The notes below the pieces were generated by a model, which saw nothing but the letters and a program-made list of their open reading frames with translations, had not been told where the DNA came from and ran no database searches. A stretch of DNA of 10,126 nt from Strigomonas culicis (taxonomy: Eukaryota > Euglenozoa > Kinetoplastea > Trypanosomatida > Trypanosomatidae). The translations under genes were made by a program, and so were the position numbers. Of the stretch, positions 115-10,126 are shown piece by piece (position 1 is the stretch's first letter; each line of letters begins with the position of its first letter). The stretch lies in contig AUXH01000669.1 in NCBI GenBank assembly GCA_000482145.1, positions 1 through 10,126 of the forward strand. Direction: 5' to 3'.

Positions 115-2745
115 TTAGCTCCGCCACGGCCGCTGTGGTGTCTGCTGCCCTGCGCTGCCGCCATCCCTGCGCTCACTGACCTCTACGCCGGGTCCGGCCG
201 CCGCGTCCACCCGCGGCGCGGAGCTGCCACCACCACCGTTGGTGGCGGCGTAGCCCGTGCCGCGCGTCGGCGTCGCGCGCGTGTTGCTAAAGACGTGGTG
301 GTCGCCGCCCCGCCCGCGCGACTTGGCGGTGCACACCTGTCCGCTGAGCCGCTTCACCGCCTCGCTCGCGTCGCGCACGATGCGGCCGAACTCGTCGTCC
401 TTCGCGGCGGCGGACTTGCTGTCCTGCAGATAGACGTCGAGCCGCGCGGCCATCTTGTCGCGCTCCTGCCGCACGAGCTCCGTCTCCTCGCGCGCCTTCA
501 GCATCTCGCGGCGCGCGTCGTCAGCGGCCTGGCGCAGCTGCGGCAGCTCCCGCAGCCGCGCCTGCAGCTCGGTGAGCTGCTGCTGCAGCCGGCTGCCCGC
601 GTCCTGGTGGCTCTGCAGCGCGCGCAGCTGCTCCGCGAGCCGCCGCGCCTCCTCCTGCACCTGCTGGTACCGCTCGTGGAGCTGCAGGTTCGCCTGCATC
701 AGCTGGTCGCGGTCCTGCTGCTGGTGCGCCGCGCTCTGGCGCGCGGCCTCGGCCGCCGCGCACCGCGCGCGCAGCACCTGCACCTCCTCCAGCAGCGCCG
801 CGCGGCCGCGCTCGGCGCCCTTCCAGTCGCGCTGCAGCTGGTCGCAGCGTTGTTGGCTCCGCTGCTGTTCCTCCGCGAGCCGCGCGGCGCCCTCGTCGCG
901 CTCGCGCGCCAGCCGCTCGACCGCCGCCTGCAGCTCCTTCGCGTAGCTGCCGCCCTCGCCCTGCGCCGCGCGCGCCTCCTCCAGCTCCGCCGACGCCGCG
1001 CGCAGCTGGCCGACCACCTCCGCGAGGTGCTGCCGCTGCCGCTCGCCGTCCTCGCGCTGCTGCTCCAGGTGGCTCTCGAGCGCGCGGCGCGCGGCCTCGA
1101 GCGTCTGCACCTTCGCGGCCGCCTCGTCGCGGCCCCGCACCGCCGACCGCGACTCCGCGCGCGCTTCCTCCAGCGCCGCGCGCAGCCCGCCCACCTCCGC
1201 CTCCAGCAGCGCCCGCACGCGCTCCAGCTCCGCGAGGTGCTGTTGCTGCTGCTCCGCCAGCTCTGCCGCGCTGCGCTGCTGATACGTGTCGTAGCGCTCC
1301 TCGCTGTCGGCCAGCGCCTGCTGCAGCCGCTCCACCGCCTCGCGGCTCTCCGCCAGCTGCTGCATCGCGACGCCGCAGCGCTCGCCGCTCACGGCGACGT
1401 CCGCCTGCAGCCGCCGCACGCGCTGGTCGTACTCGGCCGCGATGGTGTCGTTCGTCTGGCGAATGTCTGCGATGGCGTCGTCCGCGCGGCGCCGCTCCGC
1501 CTGCAGCGCGGCCTGCAGGTCCTCCACCTGCCGCGTCGCGTCGCCGAGGGCGGCGTCCGCCTCCTGGAGCGCGGCCGTCTTGGCGGCGCCCGCCGCGCGC
1601 TCGGCCTCGAGCCGCCGGCGCAGCTCGTCCAGCTCCTCGGCGGCCTCGTCGCCCTGCTGCAGCAGGGCCTGCATGCTCGCCTCGTGCTCGCGCGTGAGGG
1701 CGGTCAGTGCGCCGGCCACCTGCTGCGCCTGCTCCAGCCGCTCCGTCGTGGCGCGCAGCTGCTGCGCCACGTGCTCGTGTGTGTCGCGCGGGACGGTGCC
1801 GCCGTGGCAGCGCTGCAGCGCCAGTTCGCTGCACACGAGGTCGTGCTCGCCCTGCAGCTGCGACAGCCGCTGCCACAGCTCCTTGTTCTCCGCCATCAGC
1901 GCCCGCATGAAGTCGCCCGCCTCCTGGTCGAGCCCGTCCTTGAACTGCGAGAGCTGCTCGTGCAGCACGCCGAGGGCGCCCTCCGCGCGCAGCACACGTG
2001 CCTCCAGGTCCGTCGCCGCGGCTAGCACGCCGCTGCGCGCGACGAAGAAGGCGGTTTCGCCCTCCTCCCCGCGCGAGCGCAGCGCATCGAGCGCGGTCAG
2101 CACGCGGTCGACGAGCGCCTGCTGGCTGCCGTGGAGCTCGCTCTCCAGCCGGCGCACCTCCACCGTCGGCAGGTACTGGCTGCGGTCGCCCAGCAGCCGC
2201 TGCACCTCGCGCTGGTCGAGGCCGCGGCTGGCCGCGAGTTCCTCCACGCGCCGCTGCAGCTTCTCTGCCTGCCAGTGGGCGTCGCGCAGCTCCAGCTTCA
2301 GGCCCTCGCGGTCCTCGCGCGTGCCCTTCGCGCGCTGGCGTTCCTGGACGAGCTGCTCCTCGAGCCGCCTCACGTCGCCCTCCGTGCTCGTCAGCCGCTC
2401 GACCGCCGCGCTGTAGCGGTGCGACAGCGAGCTGTGCTCCAGGCGCTGTTCGTTCAGCGCCGCGGTCGCCTCGCCGAGCCGCCGGCTCGTGTCGTACAGC
2501 TCGTCCTTCATCGCGCGCAGCTCGCGCTGCGCCTGCTGCGCCTGCTGCTGCACCAGGCTGCGCTGTAGGTCTACGCTCGCGGGGAGGGCGGCCGCCGCCG
2601 CCTGCGAAGGCGACGCGCCGGAGCGGCGGCGCGTGCCACCGACGGACGCCGACGCGCGCGAGGCCGCGGCCACGAGGTCTGCCGACAGGTCCTCCAGCGG
2701 CAGCAGGATCTGGCCGCCGTGGGCGCTGTCGGGGGACAGCTCCAT
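115..2745 (-). CDS. Large coiled-coil protein, function unknown (gene C, 876 aa)
   Basis: Residues 1-57 are low-complexity (Ala/Ser-rich, with an RRR at 39-41). From about residue 58 to 805 the protein is almost entirely heptad-like and rich in Gln, Glu, Arg, Ala and Leu. Proline-containing breaks near residues 186-195 and 313-322 split it into segments of about 58-190, 196-312 and 324-805. The last ~71 residues are Gly/Ser/Thr/Arg-rich and probably disordered. No signal peptide, membrane span, kinase, motor or zinc motif is visible. Such proteins in trypanosomatids are often cytoskeletal (basal body, flagellum, flagellum attachment zone), but that is family-level inference and I do not recognise this one. 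The ATG at 2745 is chosen because it is the first AUG after a strong pyrimidine-tract/AG acceptor 48 nt upstream. The gene ends in TAA. Long open frames on the other strand are by-products of its GC-rich codon use. Confidence 0.9.
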   Translation of the reverse strand: MELSPDSAHGGQILLPLEDLSADLVAAASRASASVGGTRRRSGASPSQAAAAALPASVDLQRSLVQQQAQQAQRELRAMKDELYDTSRRLGEATAALNEQRLEHSSLSHRYSAAVERLTSTEGDVRRLEEQLVQERQRAKGTREDREGLKLELRDAHWQAEKLQRRVEELAASRGLDQREVQRLLGDRSQYLPTVEVRRLESELHGSQQALVDRVLTALDALRSRGEEGETAFFVARSGVLAAATDLEARVLRAEGALGVLHEQLSQFKDGLDQEAGDFMRALMAENKELWQRLSQLQGEHDLVCSELALQRCHGGTVPRDTHEHVAQQLRATTERLEQAQQVAGALTALTREHEASMQALLQQGDEAAEELDELRRRLEAERAAGAAKTAALQEADAALGDATRQVEDLQAALQAERRRADDAIADIRQTNDTIAAEYDQRVRRLQADVAVSGERCGVAMQQLAESREAVERLQQALADSEERYDTYQQRSAAELAEQQQQHLAELERVRALLEAEVGGLRAALEEARAESRSAVRGRDEAAAKVQTLEAARRALESHLEQQREDGERQRQHLAEVVGQLRAASAELEEARAAQGEGGSYAKELQAAVERLARERDEGAARLAEEQQRSQQRCDQLQRDWKGAERGRAALLEEVQVLRARCAAAEAARQSAAHQQQDRDQLMQANLQLHERYQQVQEEARRLAEQLRALQSHQDAGSRLQQQLTELQARLRELPQLRQAADDARREMLKAREETELVRQERDKMAARLDVYLQDSKSAAAKDDEFGRIVRDASEAVKRLSGQVCTAKSRGRGGDHHVFSNTRATPTRGTGYAATNGGGGSSAPRVDAAAGPGVEVSERRDGGSAGQQTPQRPWRS

Positions 2746-2793
2746 CTCACTATGAAACTATGGATGTTGTGCGGTACACACAAACGCGATCTA
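2746..2793 (-). other. Predicted short 5' UTR of gene C
   Basis: This 48-nt leader runs from the predicted trans-splice acceptor to the gene C start and contains no AUG. The next AUG upstream on this strand is at 2846, before the acceptor, where it would open only a 9-codon frame. The short leader contrasts with the long ones inferred for genes A and B. Confidence 0.6.
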
Positions 2794-2816
2794 CTAAAAA
2801 AAAAGGGGGAAAAGAG
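2794..2816 (-). promoter_or_regulatory. Predicted spliced-leader acceptor for gene C
   Basis: Read on the minus strand, an uninterrupted pyrimidine tract (2814 down to 2797) runs into TAG, with the AG at 2795-2794. This is the standard kinetoplastid trans-splicing signal. It is the first AG after the tract and lies 48 nt before the ATG. A second TAG follows immediately (AG at 2792-2791) and could be used alternatively. Confidence 0.7.
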
Positions 2817-3190
2817 CTACACAAAGCAGTTTATGTGTATGCGCATATAAAAAAGGAAAGAGGGAAAGAATGAGGAGACATAGTTGTGGAAAGGCAGAAC
2901 GCCCACACACACACATACACACTATTGCAGTCTTCGAAGGAAAGGCATTTGGCACATTCCTCTCCAGTTCTTACTTAGATATTTCTTTCTTTCTTTCCTT
3001 TTTTGATATAGAAGTCGTCATTTTTGATGTGTATAGTTTTTTCTTTTCTTTTACAGTGAAAAAAAAAGTTCAAATAAAATGAAGTAGTATTCATGTGATT
3101 CAACGAAACATTTTCAAAAAAGGGAAAAAAGAAAAAAGAACAAAATGACACAATTCTGTGCATTAGTGAAAGAGTAAATAATAATTACAA

Positions 3191-3212
3191 AATAATAATA
3201 AATAAATAAAAA
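3191..3212 (-). promoter_or_regulatory. AU-rich element in the gene B 3' flank
   Basis: On the transcript strand this reads as overlapping AUUUA pentamers in a UUAUUUAUUUAUU context followed by UAUUAUU. It lies about 740 nt after the gene B stop. Motifs of this kind are bound by CCCH proteins in several eukaryotes, including trypanosome ZC3H11 (UAUU repeats). Function here is inference, and it must lie upstream of the true poly(A) site to matter. Confidence 0.35.
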
Positions 3213-3892
3213 ATTATAAATCAATTCAAAAAAAGATCGTTGCTAGTGTACAAGTGTATATATAGTATTTTTAAAAAATGGAAAAAAAATGAAAGAATAA
3301 ACGGAAAGATTGTGGATATTATTAAAGGTAATTGATTCCTGTTGAATTGCTCAATGCCTACACATAAATACTGTCCTCTAAATTGTCGATTTGTTTTTTT
3401 TTTTTGCTTTCCTTTTATTTAATTCTTTTGTTTAGTGTTACTTTTTTTCTCTCTTTATTATTAACAACATCGTTCCATAACATATTGCACCGCACAGAAA
3501 AAAGAAGGAAAATCTATTGAAATCACTTCTGACATGATAGAATACAGCAAAACAAGCGTCATTTACAAAAAGGACACGATGACAGAGAAATAAACAAATA
3601 AAGAATTTAAATGAAGCTCAAACTACCAACAATTGAAACAGAAAAAAAAAAGATATCCCGAAATGAGTGGGAAACAAAGTACTATCTTTATCATGGTTAT
3701 ATTTACGTCATCATGTATTAGTACTGTGAATAATCGGAAAGTCCGTTCAATAACTGCGAAGCAATGAAAGGAATGGAAAAGAGAGAAACATACACAAACA
3801 CGCACTTTCTTGAAAATAAAAAAAAAGAAACTAAAAAGAAACACATGAAAAAAGGTAGAAACCAATAAAAGAAAAGTGAAGAAAAAACAAAA

Positions 3893-3931
3893 CTATCACC
3901 GAAAAGAAAAGAAAAAAAAAGAAAAAAAAGA
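3893..3931 (-). promoter_or_regulatory. Pyrimidine tract and TAG immediately after the gene B stop codon
   Basis: About 20 nt after the TGA, the transcript has a ~30-nt pyrimidine run (3930-3901) followed by CGGTGATAG, with the AG at 3894-3893. It has the form of a trans-splice acceptor, but its position would place the linked polyadenylation site inside gene B. It may instead bind a pyrimidine-tract RNA-binding protein, or mark a minor acceptor. Confidence 0.4.
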
Positions 3932-3950
3932 CAAGCCTGTTCTCTTCCCT

Positions 3951-5630
3951 TCACCGACCTTTCGATGAGGGCTTGAGCTCCGCCGCTGCGACTGCGCTGG
4001 CGGCCACGGGGGGCAGGTCGGCGAGCGCCGCGATTGCGGGCACGGCGCGCAGCGCCACCGCCTCGGTGCTGCCTTTTGGCAGAAAGAGCAGCGTCCCAAT
4101 CGACTGCGCGTCGTCCAGCAGCGCGCTCGTCTCCGCGGTGAGGGTGAGCGTCAGCGCGTGCCTCTTCGTCGCGCGGCCGTCCGCGGCCTTCGCCGCCGCC
4201 GGCGCGCGCGCGGTGTGGCGGCGGAAGTCGACGGACAGGCTGTCGTCGACGGGCACGCGGTGCACGTGCGGACAGTGCGGCCCGCGGCGGCACAGCCCGG
4301 CGCGCTCGTAGTCCTCACACAGCGCGAGCGGCCCGGCGCCGCGCCGCTCGGCGCCCTCCGTCACGAGCACGCGCTGCGACGGCAGCGCCACCGGCGTGGC
4401 GGGCGGCTCGCCCTTTGCGGTCGGCTGCACCACCTCCAGCGTCTCGCCGGGCGGCAGCCGCGCGTACGTGCACAGCCCCTCCTCGCGCCACGTGTAATGG
4501 ACGTGGATCGGCTGGCCGACCAGGTGCTTCGGGTCGCAGTCCACGTGCACGAACTTGCACTGCGCGCCCACCGTGCAGCTCGCGGGCGTGAAGGCCTCGT
4601 AGTTGCGGCACAGCACGAGCCGCGTGATGTTCATCCGCGACGGCGGCAGGTGCACCACCGCCGCCGTCGGCACCTCGTAGATGAAGTGGAAGTCGGGGTC
4701 GAACACCTCGGTGACGGCGCCCTCCACCGGCGTGCGCGGCTCCGTGTCGGGCGACTTCGATGCGGCCTTCGACGTCTTGCTGGAGAGGCTGAGCGCGGCC
4801 TTCGCGACGGGGAGGTCGGCCGGCAGCGCGCCGCGCCTGGGCGCCGAGGCGGACTTGGCGGCGGTCAGGGGCCAGTGCGTGGCCGGCCGGCGCTGCGGCG
4901 GCTCCGCGTGGGGGAGCGCAGCGGCCATCTCTGGCGCCTGCATGGGGCTGGGGTTGAAGAGCAGCTGCGGCGGCGGCACCGCGCCCTCCATGATGCCGAC
5001 GCCGTAGCCGCGCGGGACGCCGCCGCCGGCGGTGGTGTAGTGTGGCACGGCGCACGCGCGCGCGCCGGGGTAGTCCTGGAAGAAGAAGGGCACCGCCGGC
5101 GGGGCCGGCGCGCCGGGGGCGGCGAGGGACCAGTTGCGGAGCATGTGGGCGACGTCCTCGTAGCCGGTCGCGACGCCGACCGCGCCACGCTCCCTCCCGC
5201 CCGGCGTGCGGTTGCCGCTCGGTGCCGCAACGTGGTTCACGTTGTTGTTGTTGCTGCTGTTGTTGCTCGGGTTCTGGATGTGCGTCGGCAGGCCGGAGTT
5301 CGCGGACAGCGCGAGGTACGCGGCGGGGTCCGACAGCACGTAGGCGAAGTCGGCGGTGCCGGGCGGCGGCGCCGCAAAGTAGGCGGGCTGCGCGGGCACC
5401 ACCCCCTGAAGCAGGTGCGAGATATCTTCGTACACAGGCGAGTACGTGCGGGCCTCCTCGATCGTGCTGCTGGTGTCGCTGAGCTGGTGGAGCCCGGTGG
5501 GGCCGGATGCGGCGCCGCCGGCCGCGATCCCCTGGCTGCTGCCGAGGGGCCCGGTCGACATGCTCTTCATGCTGGTCGTGCCGTAGCTGTTCGGGAGATT
5601 CGACAGACTGCTGATGGGGTCGAAGTGCAT
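3951..5630 (-). CDS. Two-finger CCCH zinc-finger RNA-binding protein, ZC3H20/21/22-like (gene B, 559 aa)
   Basis: This is probably a cytoplasmic mRNA-binding regulator. Finger 1 is C341-x10-C352-x5-C358-x3-H362 and finger 2 is C438-x8-C447-x5-C453-x3-H457. Residues 305-403 (finger 1 and flanks) match gene A at 96 of 99 positions. Finger 2 is a diverged homologue sharing CRRGP and CPHxH. The ~304-residue N-terminus, absent from gene A, is Pro/Ala/Gly-rich and carries YEDISHLL (67-74), YEDVAHML (157-164), an Asn/Ser run (122-132) and a Tyr/Phe patch near 181-210. The C-terminal ~70 residues are Ala/Leu-rich. There is no HxPY motif. The start is the ATG at 5630, with no other minus-strand AUG for about 920 nt upstream. 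The stop is TGA. Tandem CCCH paralogues are known in T. brucei (ZC3H20, 21, 22). Lack of the MKT1 motif fits ZC3H21 or ZC3H22 better than ZC3H20, but I cannot assign one. Confidence 0.93.
   Translation of the reverse strand: MHFDPISSLSNLPNSYGTTSMKSMSTGPLGSSQGIAAGGAASGPTGLHQLSDTSSTIEEARTYSPVYEDISHLLQGVVPAQPAYFAAPPPGTADFAYVLSDPAAYLALSANSGLPTHIQNPSNNSSNNNNVNHVAAPSGNRTPGGRERGAVGVATGYEDVAHMLRNWSLAAPGAPAPPAVPFFFQDYPGARACAVPHYTTAGGGVPRGYGVGIMEGAVPPPQLLFNPSPMQAPEMAAALPHAEPPQRRPATHWPLTAAKSASAPRRGALPADLPVAKAALSLSSKTSKAASKSPDTEPRTPVEGAVTEVFDPDFHFIYEVPTAAVVHLPPSRMNITRLVLCRNYEAFTPASCTVGAQCKFVHVDCDPKHLVGQPIHVHYTWREEGLCTYARLPPGETLEVVQPTAKGEPPATPVALPSQRVLVTEGAERRGAGPLALCEDYERAGLCRRGPHCPHVHRVPVDDSLSVDFRRHTARAPAAAKAADGRATKRHALTLTLTAETSALLDDAQSIGTLLFLPKGSTEAVALRAVPAIAALADLPPVAASAVAAAELKPSSKGR
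4422..4718 (-). repeat. 297-bp direct repeat, copy in gene B
   Basis: This matches 8674-8970 in the same orientation at 293 of 297 positions with no gap. It encodes residues 305-403 of gene B (finger 1 and flanks). Differences from the other copy give M333/L43, H378/N88 and T380/M90. Similarity stops sharply at both ends at nucleotide level. Confidence 0.95.
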
Positions 5631-5644
5631 AGGCGTTGTTCAGG

Positions 5645-5716
5645 TATATATATATATATATATATATAGATAGATAGATATGTATATATGCGTGTGTGTG
5701 TGTGTGTGTGTGTGTG
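5645..5716. repeat. Compound (TA)12 / (GATA)3 / (GT)12 microsatellite before gene B
   Basis: The plus strand shows TA units at 5645-5668, GATA units at 5669-5681 and GT units at 5692-5716. It sits immediately upstream of the gene B start, ending 15 nt from the ATG, so it is probably in the mRNA leader, where the UA run can fold on itself. Confidence 0.85.
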
Positions 5717-5817
5717 ATAAGAGGTACAATGAAAGGGTTTTGCAGTGTACAGCTGATGATTTGCTCAACTTTTGATTTAGTGGGTATCGGCTGCCTCTTT
5801 TAAATCTCTGTTTCGTC

Positions 5818-5845
5818 CTTTATTTAGAAGATTAAGAAAAAAAAA
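5818..5845 (-). promoter_or_regulatory. Alternative proximal spliced-leader acceptor for gene B
   Basis: On the minus strand a 12-nt pyrimidine tract (5845-5834) is followed by TAATCTTCTAAATAAAG, with the first AG at 5819-5818. It would give a leader of 187 nt without upstream AUGs. The tract is shorter and further from the AG than the one at 6341-6378. Confidence 0.35.
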
Positions 5846-6061
5846 CTTGCGTTTTGCGTTTGTTTGCACTTCCTTTTTTTTTTTTGATGAAGAAAAACAA
5901 TGTAAGTGTTTCTTTATTATAGGTGTATATATACTATTCTTTTTATCTTCTTGTTTGCTTGGCTATTTATGTTTTTTTATGCTTTTTTTTGATACGTGTA
6001 TGTGAATTCGTGCTTTTTGGTTAATTGTTTTTTATTTGTTTGTTTGTTTTTTATTATCTGC

Positions 6062-6098
<37 letters not shown>
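6062..6098. repeat. (GT)n(TA)n microsatellite
   Basis: About nine GT units (6062-6079) pass directly into about ten TA units (6079-6098). It lies within the inferred long leader of gene B. A (TTTG)n run sits just before it at about 6035-6049. Confidence 0.85.
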
Positions 6099-6308
6099 GT
6101 ACGTCTAATAATTCTTACTATTTGTTTTTCTCTGTTTGTTAAATATACAAACTACAGTCTACCTCGTTTATTTGTTTGTTTTTTCGGTTGTTGTACAAAG
6201 AATAGAAGACGCGAAGTATATATGCACAGGGAAAGCTATACGTATATATAGAGATATGTTGATACTCGCTTAAAAGCTATATTAAAGTAAACACTTAAAA
6301 GAAAACTA

Positions 6309-6378
6309 CTGAAAAAAAAAAAATTCAGAGCAAAAATACTGAAAAAAAAAAGAGGAAAAAAAAGAGAGAAAAAAAAAG
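6309..6378 (-). promoter_or_regulatory. Predicted distal spliced-leader acceptors for gene B (tandem)
   Basis: The plus strand is pure purine from 6341 to 6378, so the transcript has a 38-nt pyrimidine tract ending directly in CAG (AG at 6340-6339). A second tract (6323-6311) ends in another CAG (AG at 6310-6309). Both have the ideal tract-CAG form. From here to the gene B start there is no AUG, so a leader of about 680-708 nt would be translatable. They are preferred over the proximal site near 5818 because of tract length, but usage is not proven. Confidence 0.5.
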
Positions 6379-6865
6379 TGTAAACAAATATATAAATATG
6401 TAAGCGAACTTCTGTTATCTTTCAAGATACGGGAAAAAAAAATGGGAACAGGCAAGAAGAGGCAGAGGGAGAGGGAGCGCAGGTGAAAGTGACACACAGA
6501 AGTGAAAAGCACCAGTAGAACGTATAGAGCACACTGAAGCAGAAGAACAACATGGATATGAAAAGAGTATCTGGTGTTCTTTTTTTTCTTTGCATTCATA
6601 ATTCATATAAATAAATACTTTTCTGTCGTATATATTAGTTGTATCAATTTGAAGGGATACTAGCGAAACATGAAAAAAAAAAAAAAAGAGATGAAACAGT
6701 GCAAATAAGATGTATATGAACAGTAGAAAGGAAAGGAATCAATATGTATACATATATGTATATGTATAGTTGAGAGAACAAAAAAGATGAAGAAGAGTAG
6801 TACAAAAATATGTATGTCCTCCTCTAACAAAAGCAATAAATTGTTATGTTCATTAAAAAAAAAAT

Positions 6866-6928
6866 TACATATGTATATGCATACATATATACATATAAAC
6901 ATATATATATATATACATATATACACAC
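6866..6928. repeat. Degenerate TA/CATA microsatellite
   Basis: An alternating purine-pyrimidine stretch of TA, CATA and CA units in the gene A 3' flank. A shorter similar stretch lies at about 6746-6768. Confidence 0.7.
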
Positions 6929-7518
6929 GTTTTTCGAGAAAAAAAAGAAAACAAATAAAAACAATTAAAGTAAGAAGAAAACCAGCAAATGCAAACACAA
7001 CACTATAAAAAATTTATTATGATAAGAGGAAAAATGCAAAACGAAGTATATGTATCGTTGCAGAATAAACGCAAAAAAAAAACACCAAAAAACCAAAGCG
7101 AAAACAACACAAAAAGAAAAAAAGAGAAAGGGGAGAGGAATTGTATAGTTGTATATACATGTGACCTTTGTCGGTTCTCTTTTAAAGAGAAAGAACTGAC
7201 AACGATCAAGAAAAAAAAAAGAATGAACGGGTCTGTTATGCAAGGAAAGGTGGAAAGGGAAAAGAACAGGGAACAAACTATTGCTCACTGCTACTTTCAT
7301 TTTTTCAAGTGGAATAACTGTTTTCCTTATATAATATATCAAAAAATGTAGTAAAAAAACTGGAGGATTAAAAACGCTTTTAAATTGCTTCATTTTAGAA
7401 AAGAATATTCTGGTTATTGGTGCGTGGGTTTTTTTTTTTTTGCTTTGTTTCTTTTTTTATTTTATTTTTTGCTATTTTTTTTTTGATGTTGACTTTTTGG
7501 TGTTGGTGTTGTTTGTTC

Positions 7519-7566
7519 GTGCGTGTTTGTGTATGTGCGTGTTTGTGCATGTGCGCGTCTGTGAAC
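7519..7566. repeat. Imperfect 16-bp tandem repeat, three units, in the gene A 3' UTR
   Basis: Units are 7519-7534, 7535-7550 and 7551-7566. The first two differ at one base and the third is more diverged. On the transcript the shared core is CACGCAC or CGCGCAC with ACA-rich spacers. It starts 18 nt after the gene A stop. Confidence 0.6.
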
Positions 7567-7584
7567 GTGGTTATTTGCTGCCAT

Positions 7585-9012
7585 TTAGATGGAGACGCGG
7601 CTGCTGGTGAAAATGCTCATGTCGTACGGATTGTGGCGGTAGGTCGCGTTGCTGCTCTTCCGAGAACAGAAGGACGCCACGCTACGGAGGCTGCAGTCGG
7701 CGCCGCGCTCCCCGTAAGCGGAGTGGCTCGGCGAGCCTGAGCCCTGAAGCGTACCGGAGGCCCCTGACGGCGCATGCGGGCTGTAGCAGATGCTGTCCGC
7801 GTTGAGGCTGCCCGCGTCCACCGCATCCTCCTCGCCGCTCTCGTTGTTGTGCCCGAAGGCATCGTCGCGGCACCGCGCGACCTCCTCGAAGGGGGGGAGC
7901 ACGCCCGCAAGGTCGGGGCGGTGACCCGCTGACTGGCGGCCCACCGCGTACGGGTCGTGGCTGCGGCGCCCGACGCCCAGCAACGCGTGCGCGTGGCTGC
8001 GGCGCGGCGAGCCCACCAGGCTGCGCGAGGCGGCGATGGGCGCCACGACGATGGGGTGCGAATTGAGCGGCGTCAGGCCCTCCTCCTCCGAGCTGTTCGC
8101 GCTGAAGCTGGGCTGCAGCGACAGGCGGTGCTGGCAGCCGTAGCGCGCCGGGCCCGCGGGTGGAGCGCCGCGCGACGCATCCCGCGCGCGGCGCTCCACC
8201 CGCGGCGACAGGACGGTGGGCCGCGAGAAGCACGCCACATGCGGGAAGGTCGCGCCGTCCTCCAGCGTGTGGATGAACGGCGTCAGCGCGGCGTTCGGCG
8301 GCGACACCGTCGTCGACGCGGCGCCCTCCTCGATGGCCTGCTGCGCGTGGCTCTCGTGCGTGTAGCTGGCGGGTAGCCCCGCCGGCAGCGGCCGCGCCGG
8401 CGCGCGCAGATAGTCGCGCTTCGCGGCGGGGTTGACGGTGAGAATGTGGAGGTGGGGGCACCGCGGCCCGCGGCGGCACGTGCGGCGGTAGTTGAACTCG
8501 ACGCACTCCCAGAGGGAGTGGCCCGCGGCCGCGGCGCCGCCGCCGTGCTGCAGCGCCTGCGCGAGCGCGGCGGTACCGGTCGTGCACAGCACCAGCTCCG
8601 ACGGCACCTGGCGGATCGGCTGGTTGTGGCGGTTGACGAGCGTGCCGCGGCGCGGCGCCTGGCCGGACAGGTGCGGCTGCACCACCTCCAGCGTCTCGCC
8701 GGGCGGCAGCCGCGCGTACGTGCACAGCCCCTCCTCGCGCCACATGTAGTTGACGTGGATCGGCTGGCCGACCAGGTGCTTCGGGTCGCAGTCCACGTGC
8801 ACGAACTTGCACTGCGCGCCCACCGTGCAGCTCGCGGGCGTGAAGGCCTCGTAGTTGCGGCACAGCACGAGCCGCGTGATGTTCAGCCGCGACGGCGGCA
8901 GGTGCACCACCGCCGCCGTCGGCACCTCGTAGATGAAGTGGAAGTCGGGGTCGAACACCTCGGTGACGGCCTCAGCCGCTGTAGCAGCTACGTTATTCTG
9001 TTCGAGGGACAT
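7585..9012 (-). CDS. Two-finger CCCH zinc-finger protein with MKT1-type HxPY motifs, ZC3H20-like (gene A, 475 aa)
   Basis: This is a likely mRNA-binding post-transcriptional regulator. Finger 1 is C51-x10-C62-x5-C68-x3-H72 and finger 2 is C170-x8-C179-x5-C185-x3-H189. Residues 15-113 are nearly identical to residues 305-403 of gene B, only 14 residues after the start. The rest (about 200-475) is Ser/Pro/Gly-rich and probably disordered, with HDPY at 352-355 and YRHNPY at 458-463, close to the C-terminus. In T. brucei, H(D/E/N/Q)PY motifs recruit MKT1, which with PBP1 stabilises bound mRNAs, and ZC3H20 is one such partner. So mRNA stabilisation is the likely role (inference). The start is the ATG at 9012. 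An in-frame extension to 9030 would need TTG as initiator, which is not expected in a eukaryote. The stop is TAA. A perfect 21-bp inverted repeat lies in the region encoding residues ~270-287. Confidence 0.93.
   Translation of the reverse strand: MSLEQNNVAATAAEAVTEVFDPDFHFIYEVPTAAVVHLPPSRLNITRLVLCRNYEAFTPASCTVGAQCKFVHVDCDPKHLVGQPIHVNYMWREEGLCTYARLPPGETLEVVQPHLSGQAPRRGTLVNRHNQPIRQVPSELVLCTTGTAALAQALQHGGGAAAAGHSLWECVEFNYRRTCRRGPRCPHLHILTVNPAAKRDYLRAPARPLPAGLPASYTHESHAQQAIEEGAASTTVSPPNAALTPFIHTLEDGATFPHVACFSRPTVLSPRVERRARDASRGAPPAGPARYGCQHRLSLQPSFSANSSEEEGLTPLNSHPIVVAPIAASRSLVGSPRRSHAHALLGVGRRSHDPYAVGRQSAGHRPDLAGVLPPFEEVARCRDDAFGHNNESGEEDAVDAGSLNADSICYSPHAPSGASGTLQGSGSPSHSAYGERGADCSLRSVASFCSRKSSNATYRHNPYDMSIFTSSRVSI
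8154..8205. repeat. Perfect 21-bp inverted repeat (hairpin) inside gene A
   Basis: Arms 8154-8174 and 8185-8205 are exact reverse complements, 19 of 21 pairs are G-C, and the loop is 10 nt. It lies in the coding region for residues ~270-287 of gene A, in the disordered C-terminal half. The mRNA would form a very stable stem-loop. Confidence 0.9.
8674..8970 (-). repeat. 297-bp direct repeat, copy in gene A
   Basis: This is the second copy of the block at 4422-4718. It encodes residues 15-113 of gene A, so the repeat begins only 42 nt after the start codon. Its flanks do not align with those of the gene B copy except for short matches around finger 2. Confidence 0.95.
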
Positions 9013-9072
9013 GAAAGAATACGAGAGCAAGAGGAATTATATCAGTATAAAATAAAAAATATTGTCTGTATA

Positions 9073-9114
9073 CTTTAAAAATAACAAGACCAAAAAAAAA
9101 GAAAAAAAGAAGAG
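9073..9114 (-). promoter_or_regulatory. Alternative proximal spliced-leader acceptor for gene A
   Basis: A 23-nt pyrimidine tract (9114-9092 on the minus strand) is followed 17 nt later by the first AG (9074-9073), giving a 60-nt AUG-free leader. This is a good acceptor too, so gene A may be trans-spliced at two sites. Confidence 0.5.
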
Positions 9115-9145
9115 TGGTTCTTTTTTTCAAGAGAAGTATGTCTAC

Positions 9146-9169
9146 GTGTGTGTGTGTGTGTGTGTGTGT
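9146..9169. repeat. (GT)12 microsatellite in the inferred leader of gene A
   Basis: Twelve GT units on the plus strand (CA on the transcript), followed by TA-rich sequence to about 9190. It parallels the CA/TA runs before gene B. Confidence 0.85.
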
Positions 9170-9426
9170 ATACACTTATATGTATATATACCGAGAGACA
9201 GCTATTACTACACGTAAAAGGTAAGACTTACAATAAGTTTAAAAAAATGATAATAATAAAAGCAAAAAAAAAACGAATTATTGTAATAGAAAGAACAATA
9301 ACAAATAATAACTGTTTTTTTTTTAAGCAAAAACAAACTGGTGGAAAAAATGATGATAAAATCAAGAGAATAAAAACTAAAAACAAGAAAAATAAGACGT
9401 GAAACCGAAATACTATTTTACGTTTT

Positions 9427-9477
9427 CTAAGAAAAAAAGAGAAGTAGAGAGAGGGGGAGAGGGGTGAGAGAGAGAAT
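9427..9477 (-). promoter_or_regulatory. Predicted distal spliced-leader acceptor for gene A
   Basis: The transcript strand has a pyrimidine tract of nearly 50 nt (9477-9429), interrupted only at 9465 and 9445, that runs straight into TTAG (AG at 9428-9427). No AUG occurs between it and the gene A start, and the first upstream AUG (9494) lies just on the other side of it. That makes it an attractive mRNA 5' end, with a leader of about 414 nt. Confidence 0.5.
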
Positions 9478-10126
9478 AATGGAAACAGATGCATTCTTTT
9501 TTTAATGAAACAAGAAAGAAGTGAATTTAGGTGGTGTGGACACAGCTGGGGATGAAGCGCAGAACACGCACTGCACAAGACTTGGAGTATTTTGGTTTCT
9601 TCTGTTTGTTTGTTTGTTTGTTTCGGTAGTTGTTTATACAAGCATGTATATAGAGAGAGCATTTTTAAATACAACGGCTACGGCGGGTGTTTTCCTCTAC
9701 TGCTGATGACGTGTTTTTTAAAGGTTTTTTTTTTGATGTTATTACGTTATCGAATAAAAGGTAAAAATAAAGAAAAAGTGATAATAAACAAAAAAAAGTC
9801 AACTGACGTTTATAGTGTTTCTTTCTCTTTTTTATATTTTGAAGGAGGAAAGAAACGACAAGAAAAAAAAAGCTTATTAGGTAATACTGGAGGAACTATA
9901 TAATTACTTTTTTTTTATATATATACACAATTATTTTTTGTTGATCCTACATACAACAAATAGGAATGACGTCGAATTAATACTTGAAATTGTATATTTT
10001 CTTGTTCTTTTTGTTGTTGTTCTTTTTTTTTATGATTATTTGTGTTGTTGTTCTTCTTTTTCCCATTTTTTTTTAATATACAGTAGAGTATACTGCAATG
10101 GATCTCGCTTATGGGTTTCTTTTGAG
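9478..10126 (-). other. Probable 3' UTR / intergenic DNA of an upstream gene outside the window
   Basis: AT-rich, with no credible coding region. It contains a (GTTT)5 run at 9604-9623 and a small patch of more balanced composition at about 9524-9590. No start, stop or conserved domain of the neighbouring gene is visible, so its strand is assumed from the polycistronic arrangement. Confidence 0.4.
9604..9623. repeat. (GTTT)5 tetranucleotide repeat
   Basis: Five exact GTTT units on the plus strand (AAAC on the minus strand). Similar shorter runs occur near 6035-6049 and 6168-6182. Confidence 0.8.

What the first reader, a model, noticed from the sequence alone, without database searches (positions are those of the whole stretch)
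4422..8970. Near-identical 297-bp zinc-finger module in tandem paralogues with no silent-only differences
Blocks 4422-4718 and 8674-8970 differ at four bases only. All four lie in the three codons that change an amino acid (M/L, H/N, T/M), and the other 96 codons are identical to the base. Finger 2 and everything else in the two proteins is strongly diverged or unrelated. Protein-level selection alone would let silent sites drift, so this points to recent gene conversion or partial duplication of just this module, followed by amino-acid change that could retune RNA specificity. Selection on the nucleotide sequence itself is the alternative.
Basis: partly seen in the sequence, partly recalled or inferred. 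Interest (0 to 1): 0.75.

Follow-up and report, generated by a model that had tools for sequence, protein, structure and literature searches.

The report
Two genes repeatedly sharing one finger
Two neighbouring genes for RNA-binding proteins in a trypanosome relative have recently copied one 90-amino-acid zinc-finger module between them while the rest of each protein stays different, and the same happened separately in a related species, which may keep two differently equipped regulators aimed at the same RNAs.

Summary
Confirmed and extended. The 297-bp blocks (4422-4718, 8674-8970) differ at 4 bases in 3 codons; no third copy was found in this 17.7-Mb assembly. Independent codon choice would give 21-34 mismatches among the 96 shared codons; none is seen. 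Homologues show a kinetoplastid CCCH tandem family (my labels A, B, C). Flank motifs make window gene A type A (with T. cruzi 'ZC3H35') and gene B type B: GT-LLFLP in 20 of 20 A, an RH[N/D]PY-like tail in 11 of 12 B. Both types occur in Trypanosoma, yet the finger-1 modules group by species in the window (by-gene tree rejected, AU p=2e-9) and in Leptomonas pyrrhocoris (90/90 identical, p=4e-4), and by gene in five Trypanosoma pairs. This is best read as recurrent, domain-limited gene conversion. Retuning of RNA specificity lacks support: 3 nonsynonymous plus 1 synonymous change, dN about dS. Proposal (inferred): one shared RNA-reading finger on two proteins with different tails, one bearing a motif reported to bind the activator MKT1.

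The parts
3951..5630 (-). Gene A, 559 aa, two CCCH fingers; type A (subfamily holding ABB37_06223 and T. cruzi 'ZC3H35')
   Evidence: ORF; Pfam zf-CCCH; homologues; A-type flank motifs
7585..9012 (-). Gene B, 475 aa from the ATG at 9012, two CCCH fingers; type B (ABB37_06222). Same strand, upstream of gene A
   Evidence: ORF (listed from a TTG at 9030); ATG reading; homologues; B-type tail motif
4422..4718 (-). Homogenised finger-1 module, copy in gene A
8674..8970 (-). Homogenised finger-1 module, copy in gene B
4545..4610 (-). Finger 1 of gene A, C-x10-C-x5-C-x3-H
   Evidence: motif; coordinates from codon count
8797..8862 (-). Finger 1 of gene B, identical residues
   Evidence: motif; coordinates from codon count
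4260..4319 (-). Finger 2 of gene A, C-x8-C-x5-C-x3-H, diverged, not homogenised
8446..8505 (-). Finger 2 of gene B, C-x8-C-x5-C-x3-H, diverged, not homogenised
4492..4499 (-). Differing bases in the gene A T and H codons (M and N in gene B, 8744-8751); the third differing codon (M/L) has its change at 4634/8886
   Evidence: N in 43 of 44 trypanosomatid proteins at the H/N column
7624..7638 (-). RHNPY motif, ending 12 residues before the end of gene B; HNPY is a reported MKT1-binding motif
   Evidence: paper passages
4077..4097 (-). GTLLFLP motif of gene A; the pattern is present in 20 of 20 A, 0 of 12 B and 0 of 13 C proteins examined
5418..5432 (-). YEDIS motif of gene A (YEDVS in 10 of the 19 other A proteins: Leishmania, Leptomonas, Porcisia and the JGI and ENA ones; not in Trypanosoma or Angomonas)

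Best explanation
The two genes are old tandem paralogues of a kinetoplastid CCCH family. Their finger-1 module (about 90-99 codons) is repeatedly overwritten by interlocus gene conversion, probably mostly from A to B. The tract starts at the start of the module and ends between the last part of the module and the linker. Finger 2 and the rest are too diverged to recombine, so the process maintains itself: conversion keeps the module identical, and identity permits conversion. Shown: recent homogenisation in the window; separate homogenisation in L. pyrrhocoris; two more probable cases in unnamed species; no such grouping in Trypanosoma. Inferred: homologous recombination as the agent; the A-to-B direction; and the consequence, that both proteins read the same RNA element with finger 1 but carry different finger-2 and effector parts. 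B has an HNPY motif of the type that binds the activator MKT1. A belongs with ZC3H35, listed as a repressor in a T. brucei tethering screen.
For: No silent-only codons against 21-34 expected. Module A/B identity within species: window 87/90, L. pyrrhocoris 90/90, JGI pair 90/90, ENA pair 86/90; between species for the same gene the window shares only 61/90 (A) and 63/90 (B) with L. pyrrhocoris. Module tree support (SH-aLRT/UFBoot): winA+winB 96/99, L. pyrrhocoris A+B 96.5/100, JGI A+B 84.1/99. Informative sites in the module, species pattern to gene pattern: window-L. pyrrhocoris 26:0, window-JGI 27:0, window-ENA 25:0, L. pyrrhocoris-JGI 10:0, L. pyrrhocoris-ENA 10:0, JGI-ENA 2:0; finger 2 in the last three is 0:9, 0:7, 0:6. 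AU tests: by-gene module tree rejected. Negative control: in 10 of 10 Trypanosoma quartets gene pattern exceeds species pattern in the module, and the by-species tree is rejected (dlnL 196, p=0.0045). Type of both window genes from motifs in the flanks. Direction: Leptomonas-group B modules group with Leishmania and Leptomonas A modules, not with Trypanosoma B, and the JGI B copy carries A-type linker too (111-residue identical run).
Against: Nucleotide sequence was available only for the window; all other species were compared as proteins. ENA A and B do not form a clade in the weakly resolved module tree. For the window's linker plus finger 2, by-gene and by-species trees are equally good, and quartets pairing any of the four sets with T. 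cruzi show no gene pattern in finger 2 (species:gene 3:0, 0:1, 0:0, 1:0) or linker (3:0, 2:0, 5:0, 1:0); in the finger-2 tree Leptomonas B lies nearer C than Trypanosoma B. So deep A/B orthology rests on flank motifs and architecture. L. pyrrhocoris B lacks the RHxPY tail. No reads were seen, so a polishing error is not excluded. The shared-RNA and antagonist claims are untested.
Confidence: 0.87

Rival explanations
1. Purifying selection on the protein (or on the nucleotide sequence) alone keeps both modules the same, without conversion.
For: The module is conserved across kinetoplastids and codon usage is extremely biased (GC3 0.99), which lowers the number of silent differences expected.
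Against: 24 module residues are shared by winA and winB and absent from all six Leptomonas-group copies compared, and 7 are private to both L. pyrrhocoris copies in the same comparison. Constraint does not make two genes change alike in each species. Codon bias still predicts 21-34 mismatches. RNA folding of the block is ordinary, z -0.51.
Confidence: 0.03
2. Recent partial duplication: gene B gained the module from gene A as a new insertion in this lineage.
For: The window block has sharp edges, and the sequence next to it is dissimilar on both sides. Window finger 2 alone does not place gene B with other B genes.
Against: B-labelled genes of Trypanosoma and Phytomonas already carry a homologous module near the N terminus before a second finger, and window B has the B-type tail. 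Replacement in place is conversion. The same pattern recurs in L. pyrrhocoris.
Confidence: 0.06
3. Assembly or polishing artefact: one copy's sequence was written over the other.
For: The contig is only 10.1 kb in a 670-contig assembly; repeats longer than short reads are a known source of such errors.
Against: The copies differ at four bases. Gene A has A-type motifs on both sides of the module and gene B the B-type tail, so the flanks were not swapped. A separate assembly (L. pyrrhocoris, 756-kb contig) shows the same with its own residues.
Confidence: 0.04

Closest known systems
Concerted evolution of tandem arrays in trypanosomatids (beta-tubulin and adenylate cyclase arrays, review PMC4413820, passages seen)
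   Same: Tandem copies cluster by species through gene conversion.
   Different: By those passages, functionally differentiated copies retain orthology and undifferentiated ones cluster by species. Here two differentiated paralogues keep their own flanks but share one 90-residue module that clusters by species.
Tandem CCCH genes of T. brucei, T. cruzi and L. major (Kramer et al. 2010, PMC2873481, passages seen)
   Same: Reports 11 loci with tandemly repeated CCCH genes in T. brucei and/or L. major and discusses duplication before or after the species split.
   Different: 'gene conversion' and 'concerted' do not occur in its main text; identities there are for whole proteins. Which of its loci corresponds to this one was not established.
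T. brucei ZC3H35-ZC3H38 (Tb927.10.12740-12800), tethering screen (PMC4055773, passages seen)
   Same: Gene A falls in the subfamily in which a T. cruzi depositor names P0043 'Zinc finger CCCH domain-containing protein 35'; close gene numbers suggest a tandem locus.
   Different: ZC3H36-38 sequences were not retrieved, so whether they correspond to B or C is unknown. In four Trypanosoma species A and B modules are only 60-71% identical.
UBP1/UBP2 RNA-binding protein pair of trypanosomes (near-identical RRM with different flanks is recalled from memory; PMC3070815 passages, describe the pair but not that)
   Same: Two regulators of mRNA level with one type of RNA-binding domain.
   Different: RRM rather than CCCH; not compared here.
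ZC3H39/ZC3H40 of T. brucei (PMC6648352, passages seen)
   Same: Adjacent related genes for zinc-finger proteins that act on mRNA.
   Different: HC6H/U-box proteins; first considered and rejected as the family of this pair.

Membership tests
Kinetoplastid CCCH zinc-finger proteins | C-x(n)-C-x(n)-C-x3-H motif(s) | tested here: met
   Gene A: PF00642 above cutoff (26.8 vs 20.5 bits). Gene B: 17.8 bits, below cutoff. Both have C-x10-C-x5-C-x3-H and C-x8-C-x5-C-x3-H.
Type A subfamily (ABB37_06223 / T. cruzi 'ZC3H35') | GT-LLFLP motif after finger 2 | tested here: met
   winA and 19 of 19 other A proteins; 0 of 12 B, 0 of 13 C.
Type B subfamily (ABB37_06222) | N-terminal module and C-terminal RH[N/D]PY-like motif | tested here: met
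   winB has the module from residue 15 and RHNPY near the end; 10 of 11 other B proteins match the looser pattern, 9 strictly H[N/D]PY (Phytomonas has NDPY, L. pyrrhocoris none).
Type B subfamily (ABB37_06222) | Linker and finger 2 group with other B genes in a tree | tested here: inconclusive
   Window alone: by gene p=0.47, by species p=0.39; winB is a long branch in the finger-2 tree.
Interlocus gene conversion / concerted evolution | Module groups by species, flanks by gene | tested here: met
   at protein level for module and for L. pyrrhocoris flanks; the window's flanks are assigned by motifs only.
Interlocus gene conversion / concerted evolution | Low silent divergence in the tract, high outside | tested here: met
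   Window only: 0 silent-only codons of 96 in the module, 4 of 15 shared-residue codons mismatching in finger 2.
MKT1-recruiting RNA-binding proteins | Physical binding to MKT1 through HNPY | not testable with these tools
   Motif present in gene B; requirement for MKT1 interaction reported for ZC3H11 (PMC4055773 passage).
ZC3H39/40 HC6H proteins | HC6H U-box-like domain | tested here: not met
   Both window genes carry CCCH fingers and no U-box match was listed by Pfam at E 1; ZC3H39/40 are described as HC6H.

The most novel reading that the evidence does not exclude
Gene conversion serves as target-lock between antagonists. A repressor-type protein (A, the ZC3H35 side) and an MKT1-recruiting activator-type protein (B) keep competing for the same mRNAs because their RNA-reading finger is repeatedly recopied, while finger 2 and the effector tails diverge; lineages that lose the lock (Trypanosoma) split their targets, and Leishmania may have lost B altogether.
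Probability: 0.25. Interest if true: 0.82.

Novelty: new variant of a known kind. Interest (0 to 1): 0.62.

Why it matters
Conversion between tandem genes is best known for homogenising undifferentiated copies; here it holds one RNA-recognition module constant between two differentiated regulators, in at least two lineages separately. Trypanosomatids control genes mainly after transcription, so it gives a testable case of how two regulators are kept on, or released from, a common set of RNAs. It also warns that orthology calls based on the finger domain alone would mislabel these genes.

Tried and rejected
ZC3H39/40 was the first identification considered (adjacent zinc-finger genes) and was dropped because those are HC6H proteins. 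The first homologue search, with full-length gene B, found one protein; only the 7994 candidates sharing most words were scored. Region-restricted searches found 16 and 86, together 86 distinct. DNA of relatives was sought in viral and genome collections without success, so no DNA trees could be made. A C-type gene was sought in the own genome: only the two window genes and one distant CCCH gene on C70 (40 bits) were found. AlphaFold gave a mediocre model (mean pLDDT 74, pTM 0.52) and no fold match at E 0.001 (17 at E up to 10), so the three changed residues were not placed on a structure. The nearest solved-structure sequence match was weak (E 0.044). Selection on RNA structure: z -0.51, sense strand of the gene B copy only. 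Prokaryote-style promoter scan of 9013-10126 (5 found, 4.9 expected) and tRNA scan (0) gave nothing. Literature on conversion in this family: searches listed no paper whose title or abstract opening describes it; of those papers only PMC4413820 and PMC3070815 were opened, for passages. PMC6597758, the single hit, was not opened.

Of 88 proteins (86 homologues plus 2 from the window), 54 were chosen by hand for trees; the 34 left out include near-duplicates, metagenome proteins without a name and distant bodonid-type members. 45 of 88 were used for the motif counts, bodonid proteins being left out. The A, B and C labels are mine.
Full report
The blocks 4422-4718 and 8674-8970 are 297 nt long, in frame on the minus strand, and differ at four bases that fall in three codons. 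Ninety-six codons are identical to the base. Next to the block similarity drops at once on both sides (40% and 20% identity in the first two 15-nt bins upstream; 13-40% in five bins downstream), and finger 2 is 38% identical in amino acids. Codon usage is extreme (GC3 0.99 in the module, 0.91-0.95 elsewhere), which I treated as the main null: drawing codons independently from the usage of the rest of both genes and the neighbouring gene predicts 34 mismatching codons, and from the module's own usage 21, where none is seen (probabilities 10^-20 and 10^-11.6). A search of the assembly with the module found these two places and no third (2 candidates, 2 scored).

The H/N codon is CAT against AAC, and its third-position change is synonymous on either mutational path. 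The four differences are thus three nonsynonymous and one synonymous, with dN about dS about 0.0135, and 0 or 1 synonymous changes of 4 is expected 74% of the time under neutrality. The absence of silent-only codons therefore says the copies are recent, not that selection acted. All three altered residues lie outside the Cys/His ligands. Gene B keeps the family residue at two of them, so gene A is the changed copy there: N is found in 43 of 44 trypanosomatid proteins and H only in window gene A; L in 42 of 44, the others being M (window gene A) and F. The third site (T/M) varies in the family.

What the genes are. Region-restricted protein searches found 16 and 86 homologues (the first full-length search found 1). 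The listed hits that carry organism names are kinetoplastids. L. pyrrhocoris has three with consecutive tags on contigs of the same length: ABB37_06221, 06222 and 06223, which I call C, B and A. Window gene A matches type A and window gene B type B by features outside the module: GT-LLFLP occurs in 20 of 20 A proteins, 0 of 12 B and 0 of 13 C; an RH[N/D]PY-like tail occurs in 11 of 12 B (not L. pyrrhocoris B), 0 of 20 A and 0 of 13 C. By the same motifs Trypanosoma species have both A and B, so the two types appear older than the Trypanosoma/Leishmania split. Identification with ZC3H35 rests on a depositor's name for a T. cruzi A protein.

The module does not follow the genes. Within species the A and B modules are 87/90 (window), 90/90 (L. 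pyrrhocoris), 90/90 (JGI pair) and 86/90 (ENA pair) identical. Between species the same gene is only 61/90 (A) or 63/90 (B) identical for window against L. pyrrhocoris. In four Trypanosoma species A and B modules are 60-71% identical. In the module tree winA+winB has support 96/99, L. pyrrhocoris A+B 96.5/100 and JGI A+B 84.1/99 (SH-aLRT/UFBoot), while ENA A and B do not form a clade. Site patterns in the module are 26:0, 27:0, 25:0, 10:0, 10:0 and 2:0 for species over gene grouping in the six quartets; finger 2 shows 0:9, 0:7 and 0:6 in the three quartets without the window, and 1:1, 2:1, 2:1 in the three with it, where it is uninformative. Twenty-four residues are private to both window copies, seven to both L. 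pyrrhocoris copies and one each to the JGI and ENA pairs, among the eight copies compared.

Results that do not help. Quartets of each of the four sets with T. cruzi show species pattern in the module (17:0, 13:0, 11:0, 12:0) but also no gene pattern to speak of in finger 2 (3:0, 0:1, 0:0, 1:0) or linker (3:0, 2:0, 5:0, 1:0). The finger-2 tree is poorly resolved: Leptomonas-group B finger 2 lies nearer C and bodonid sequences than Trypanosoma B, and winB is a long branch. Deep orthology of A and of B therefore rests on the flank motifs and the position of the module, not on finger 2.

Topology tests. With four pairs (21 of the 54 aligned sequences), grouping the module by gene costs 140.5 lnL units (AU p=1.1e-24) while by species is accepted (p=0.31), and grouping linker plus finger 2 by species costs 179 (p=4.1e-5) while by gene is accepted (p=0.13). 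Because the JGI and ENA pairings are inferred partly from their matching modules, I repeated the tests with only the two pairs known to share a genome. Window alone: by-gene module tree rejected, p=2.0e-9. L. pyrrhocoris alone: rejected, p=4.3e-4; its linker plus finger 2 rejects by-species, p=0.0012, and accepts by-gene, p=0.14. Window linker plus finger 2: undecided (0.47 by gene, 0.39 by species). Both together: module by gene p=2.4e-7, linker plus finger 2 by species p=0.006. Negative control, five Trypanosoma pairs (not all shown to be from one strain): module by species rejected, dlnL 196, p=0.0045; in 10 of 10 Trypanosoma quartets gene pattern exceeds species pattern in the module.

Mechanism. 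Recurrent interlocus gene conversion explains the pattern best. In the aligned stretch the identity starts at the same place, the start of the module, in all four pairs (more than a few residues upstream was compared only in the window). The right edge varies: identical runs end at module residue 90 in L. pyrrhocoris, in the linker of the JGI pair, and before the end of the module in the ENA pair. Leptomonas-group B modules group with Leishmania and Leptomonas A modules and not with Trypanosoma B, and the JGI B protein has A-type linker, which suggests an A-to-B direction; for the window itself direction is not resolved. Recombination as the agent is inferred. Why the module alone is affected may need no selection: finger 2 DNA in the window has 53 differences in 120 nt, too diverged for efficient recombination (established knowledge, not tested).

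Function. Both proteins would read RNA with the same finger 1 and differ in finger 2 and in effector parts. HNPY is reported as required for ZC3H11 to interact with MKT1 (PMC4055773 passage) and is described as an MKT1-PBP1 binding motif in PMC8312218 (passage). In the T. brucei tethering screen ZC3H35 is listed among repressors and ZC3H36, 37 and 38 among activators (passages). Two other papers mention ZC3H35 only briefly: RNAi against it did not raise ZC3H11 (PMC4803223) and its mRNA rises in skin-stage T. brucei (PMC10667367). I did not retrieve ZC3H36-38 and cannot say whether they are B. The proposal that A and B are antagonists kept on the same RNAs is therefore a hypothesis.

Limits. 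Nucleotide data exist here for one species only. No reads were seen. The structure model was too weak to use. Searches of the held literature listed no title or abstract opening on conversion in this family, and the main text of the 2010 CCCH survey does not contain 'gene conversion' or 'concerted'; the library covers open-licence papers only.

Noticed in passing
P0014 and P0031 (ENA B and C proteins): The ENA B and C finger 2 share GECC where most relatives have GERC (T. grayi A also has it), and B/C finger 2 identity is 90-95% in three Leptomonas-group sets: B may also exchange finger 2 with C, making B a mosaic. The sequence is highly conserved, so this is weak.
   Followed up: partly
P0013 (JGI B protein), linker: The JGI B protein carries an A-type linker as well as the A-type module, then returns to B sequence: a longer tract pointing A to B.
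   Followed up: yes
Leishmania homologues P0011, P0040: L. martiniquensis C and A carry consecutive tags LSCM1_06776 and LSCM1_06777 and no Leishmania B was among the hits: Leishmania may have lost the middle gene B. L. seymouri B was not among the hits either, so absence from the lists is weak evidence.
   Followed up: partly
window 9013-10126 and G000:C70:26302-26649 (L005): The contig ends 1.1 kb upstream of gene B, where L. pyrrhocoris tag order would place C; no clear C gene was found in the assembly, only a distant 479-aa CCCH gene on C70.
   Followed up: partly
P0001 (L. pyrrhocoris B): It lacks the RHxPY-like tail found in the other 11 B proteins examined and is shorter than the JGI B protein; it may be truncated or misannotated.
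   Followed up: no
window 115-2745, minus strand: An 876-aa protein without a confident Pfam match that reads like a coiled coil (weak HAUS1 match, E 0.011), next gene after A on the same strand.
   Followed up: no
window intergenic stretches, e.g. 2750-3950 and 5640-7580: Very A+T-rich intergenic DNA with TA, TG and poly-A runs (read, not measured) between genes with GC3 of 0.91-0.95: an extreme contrast between coding and non-coding composition.
   Followed up: no
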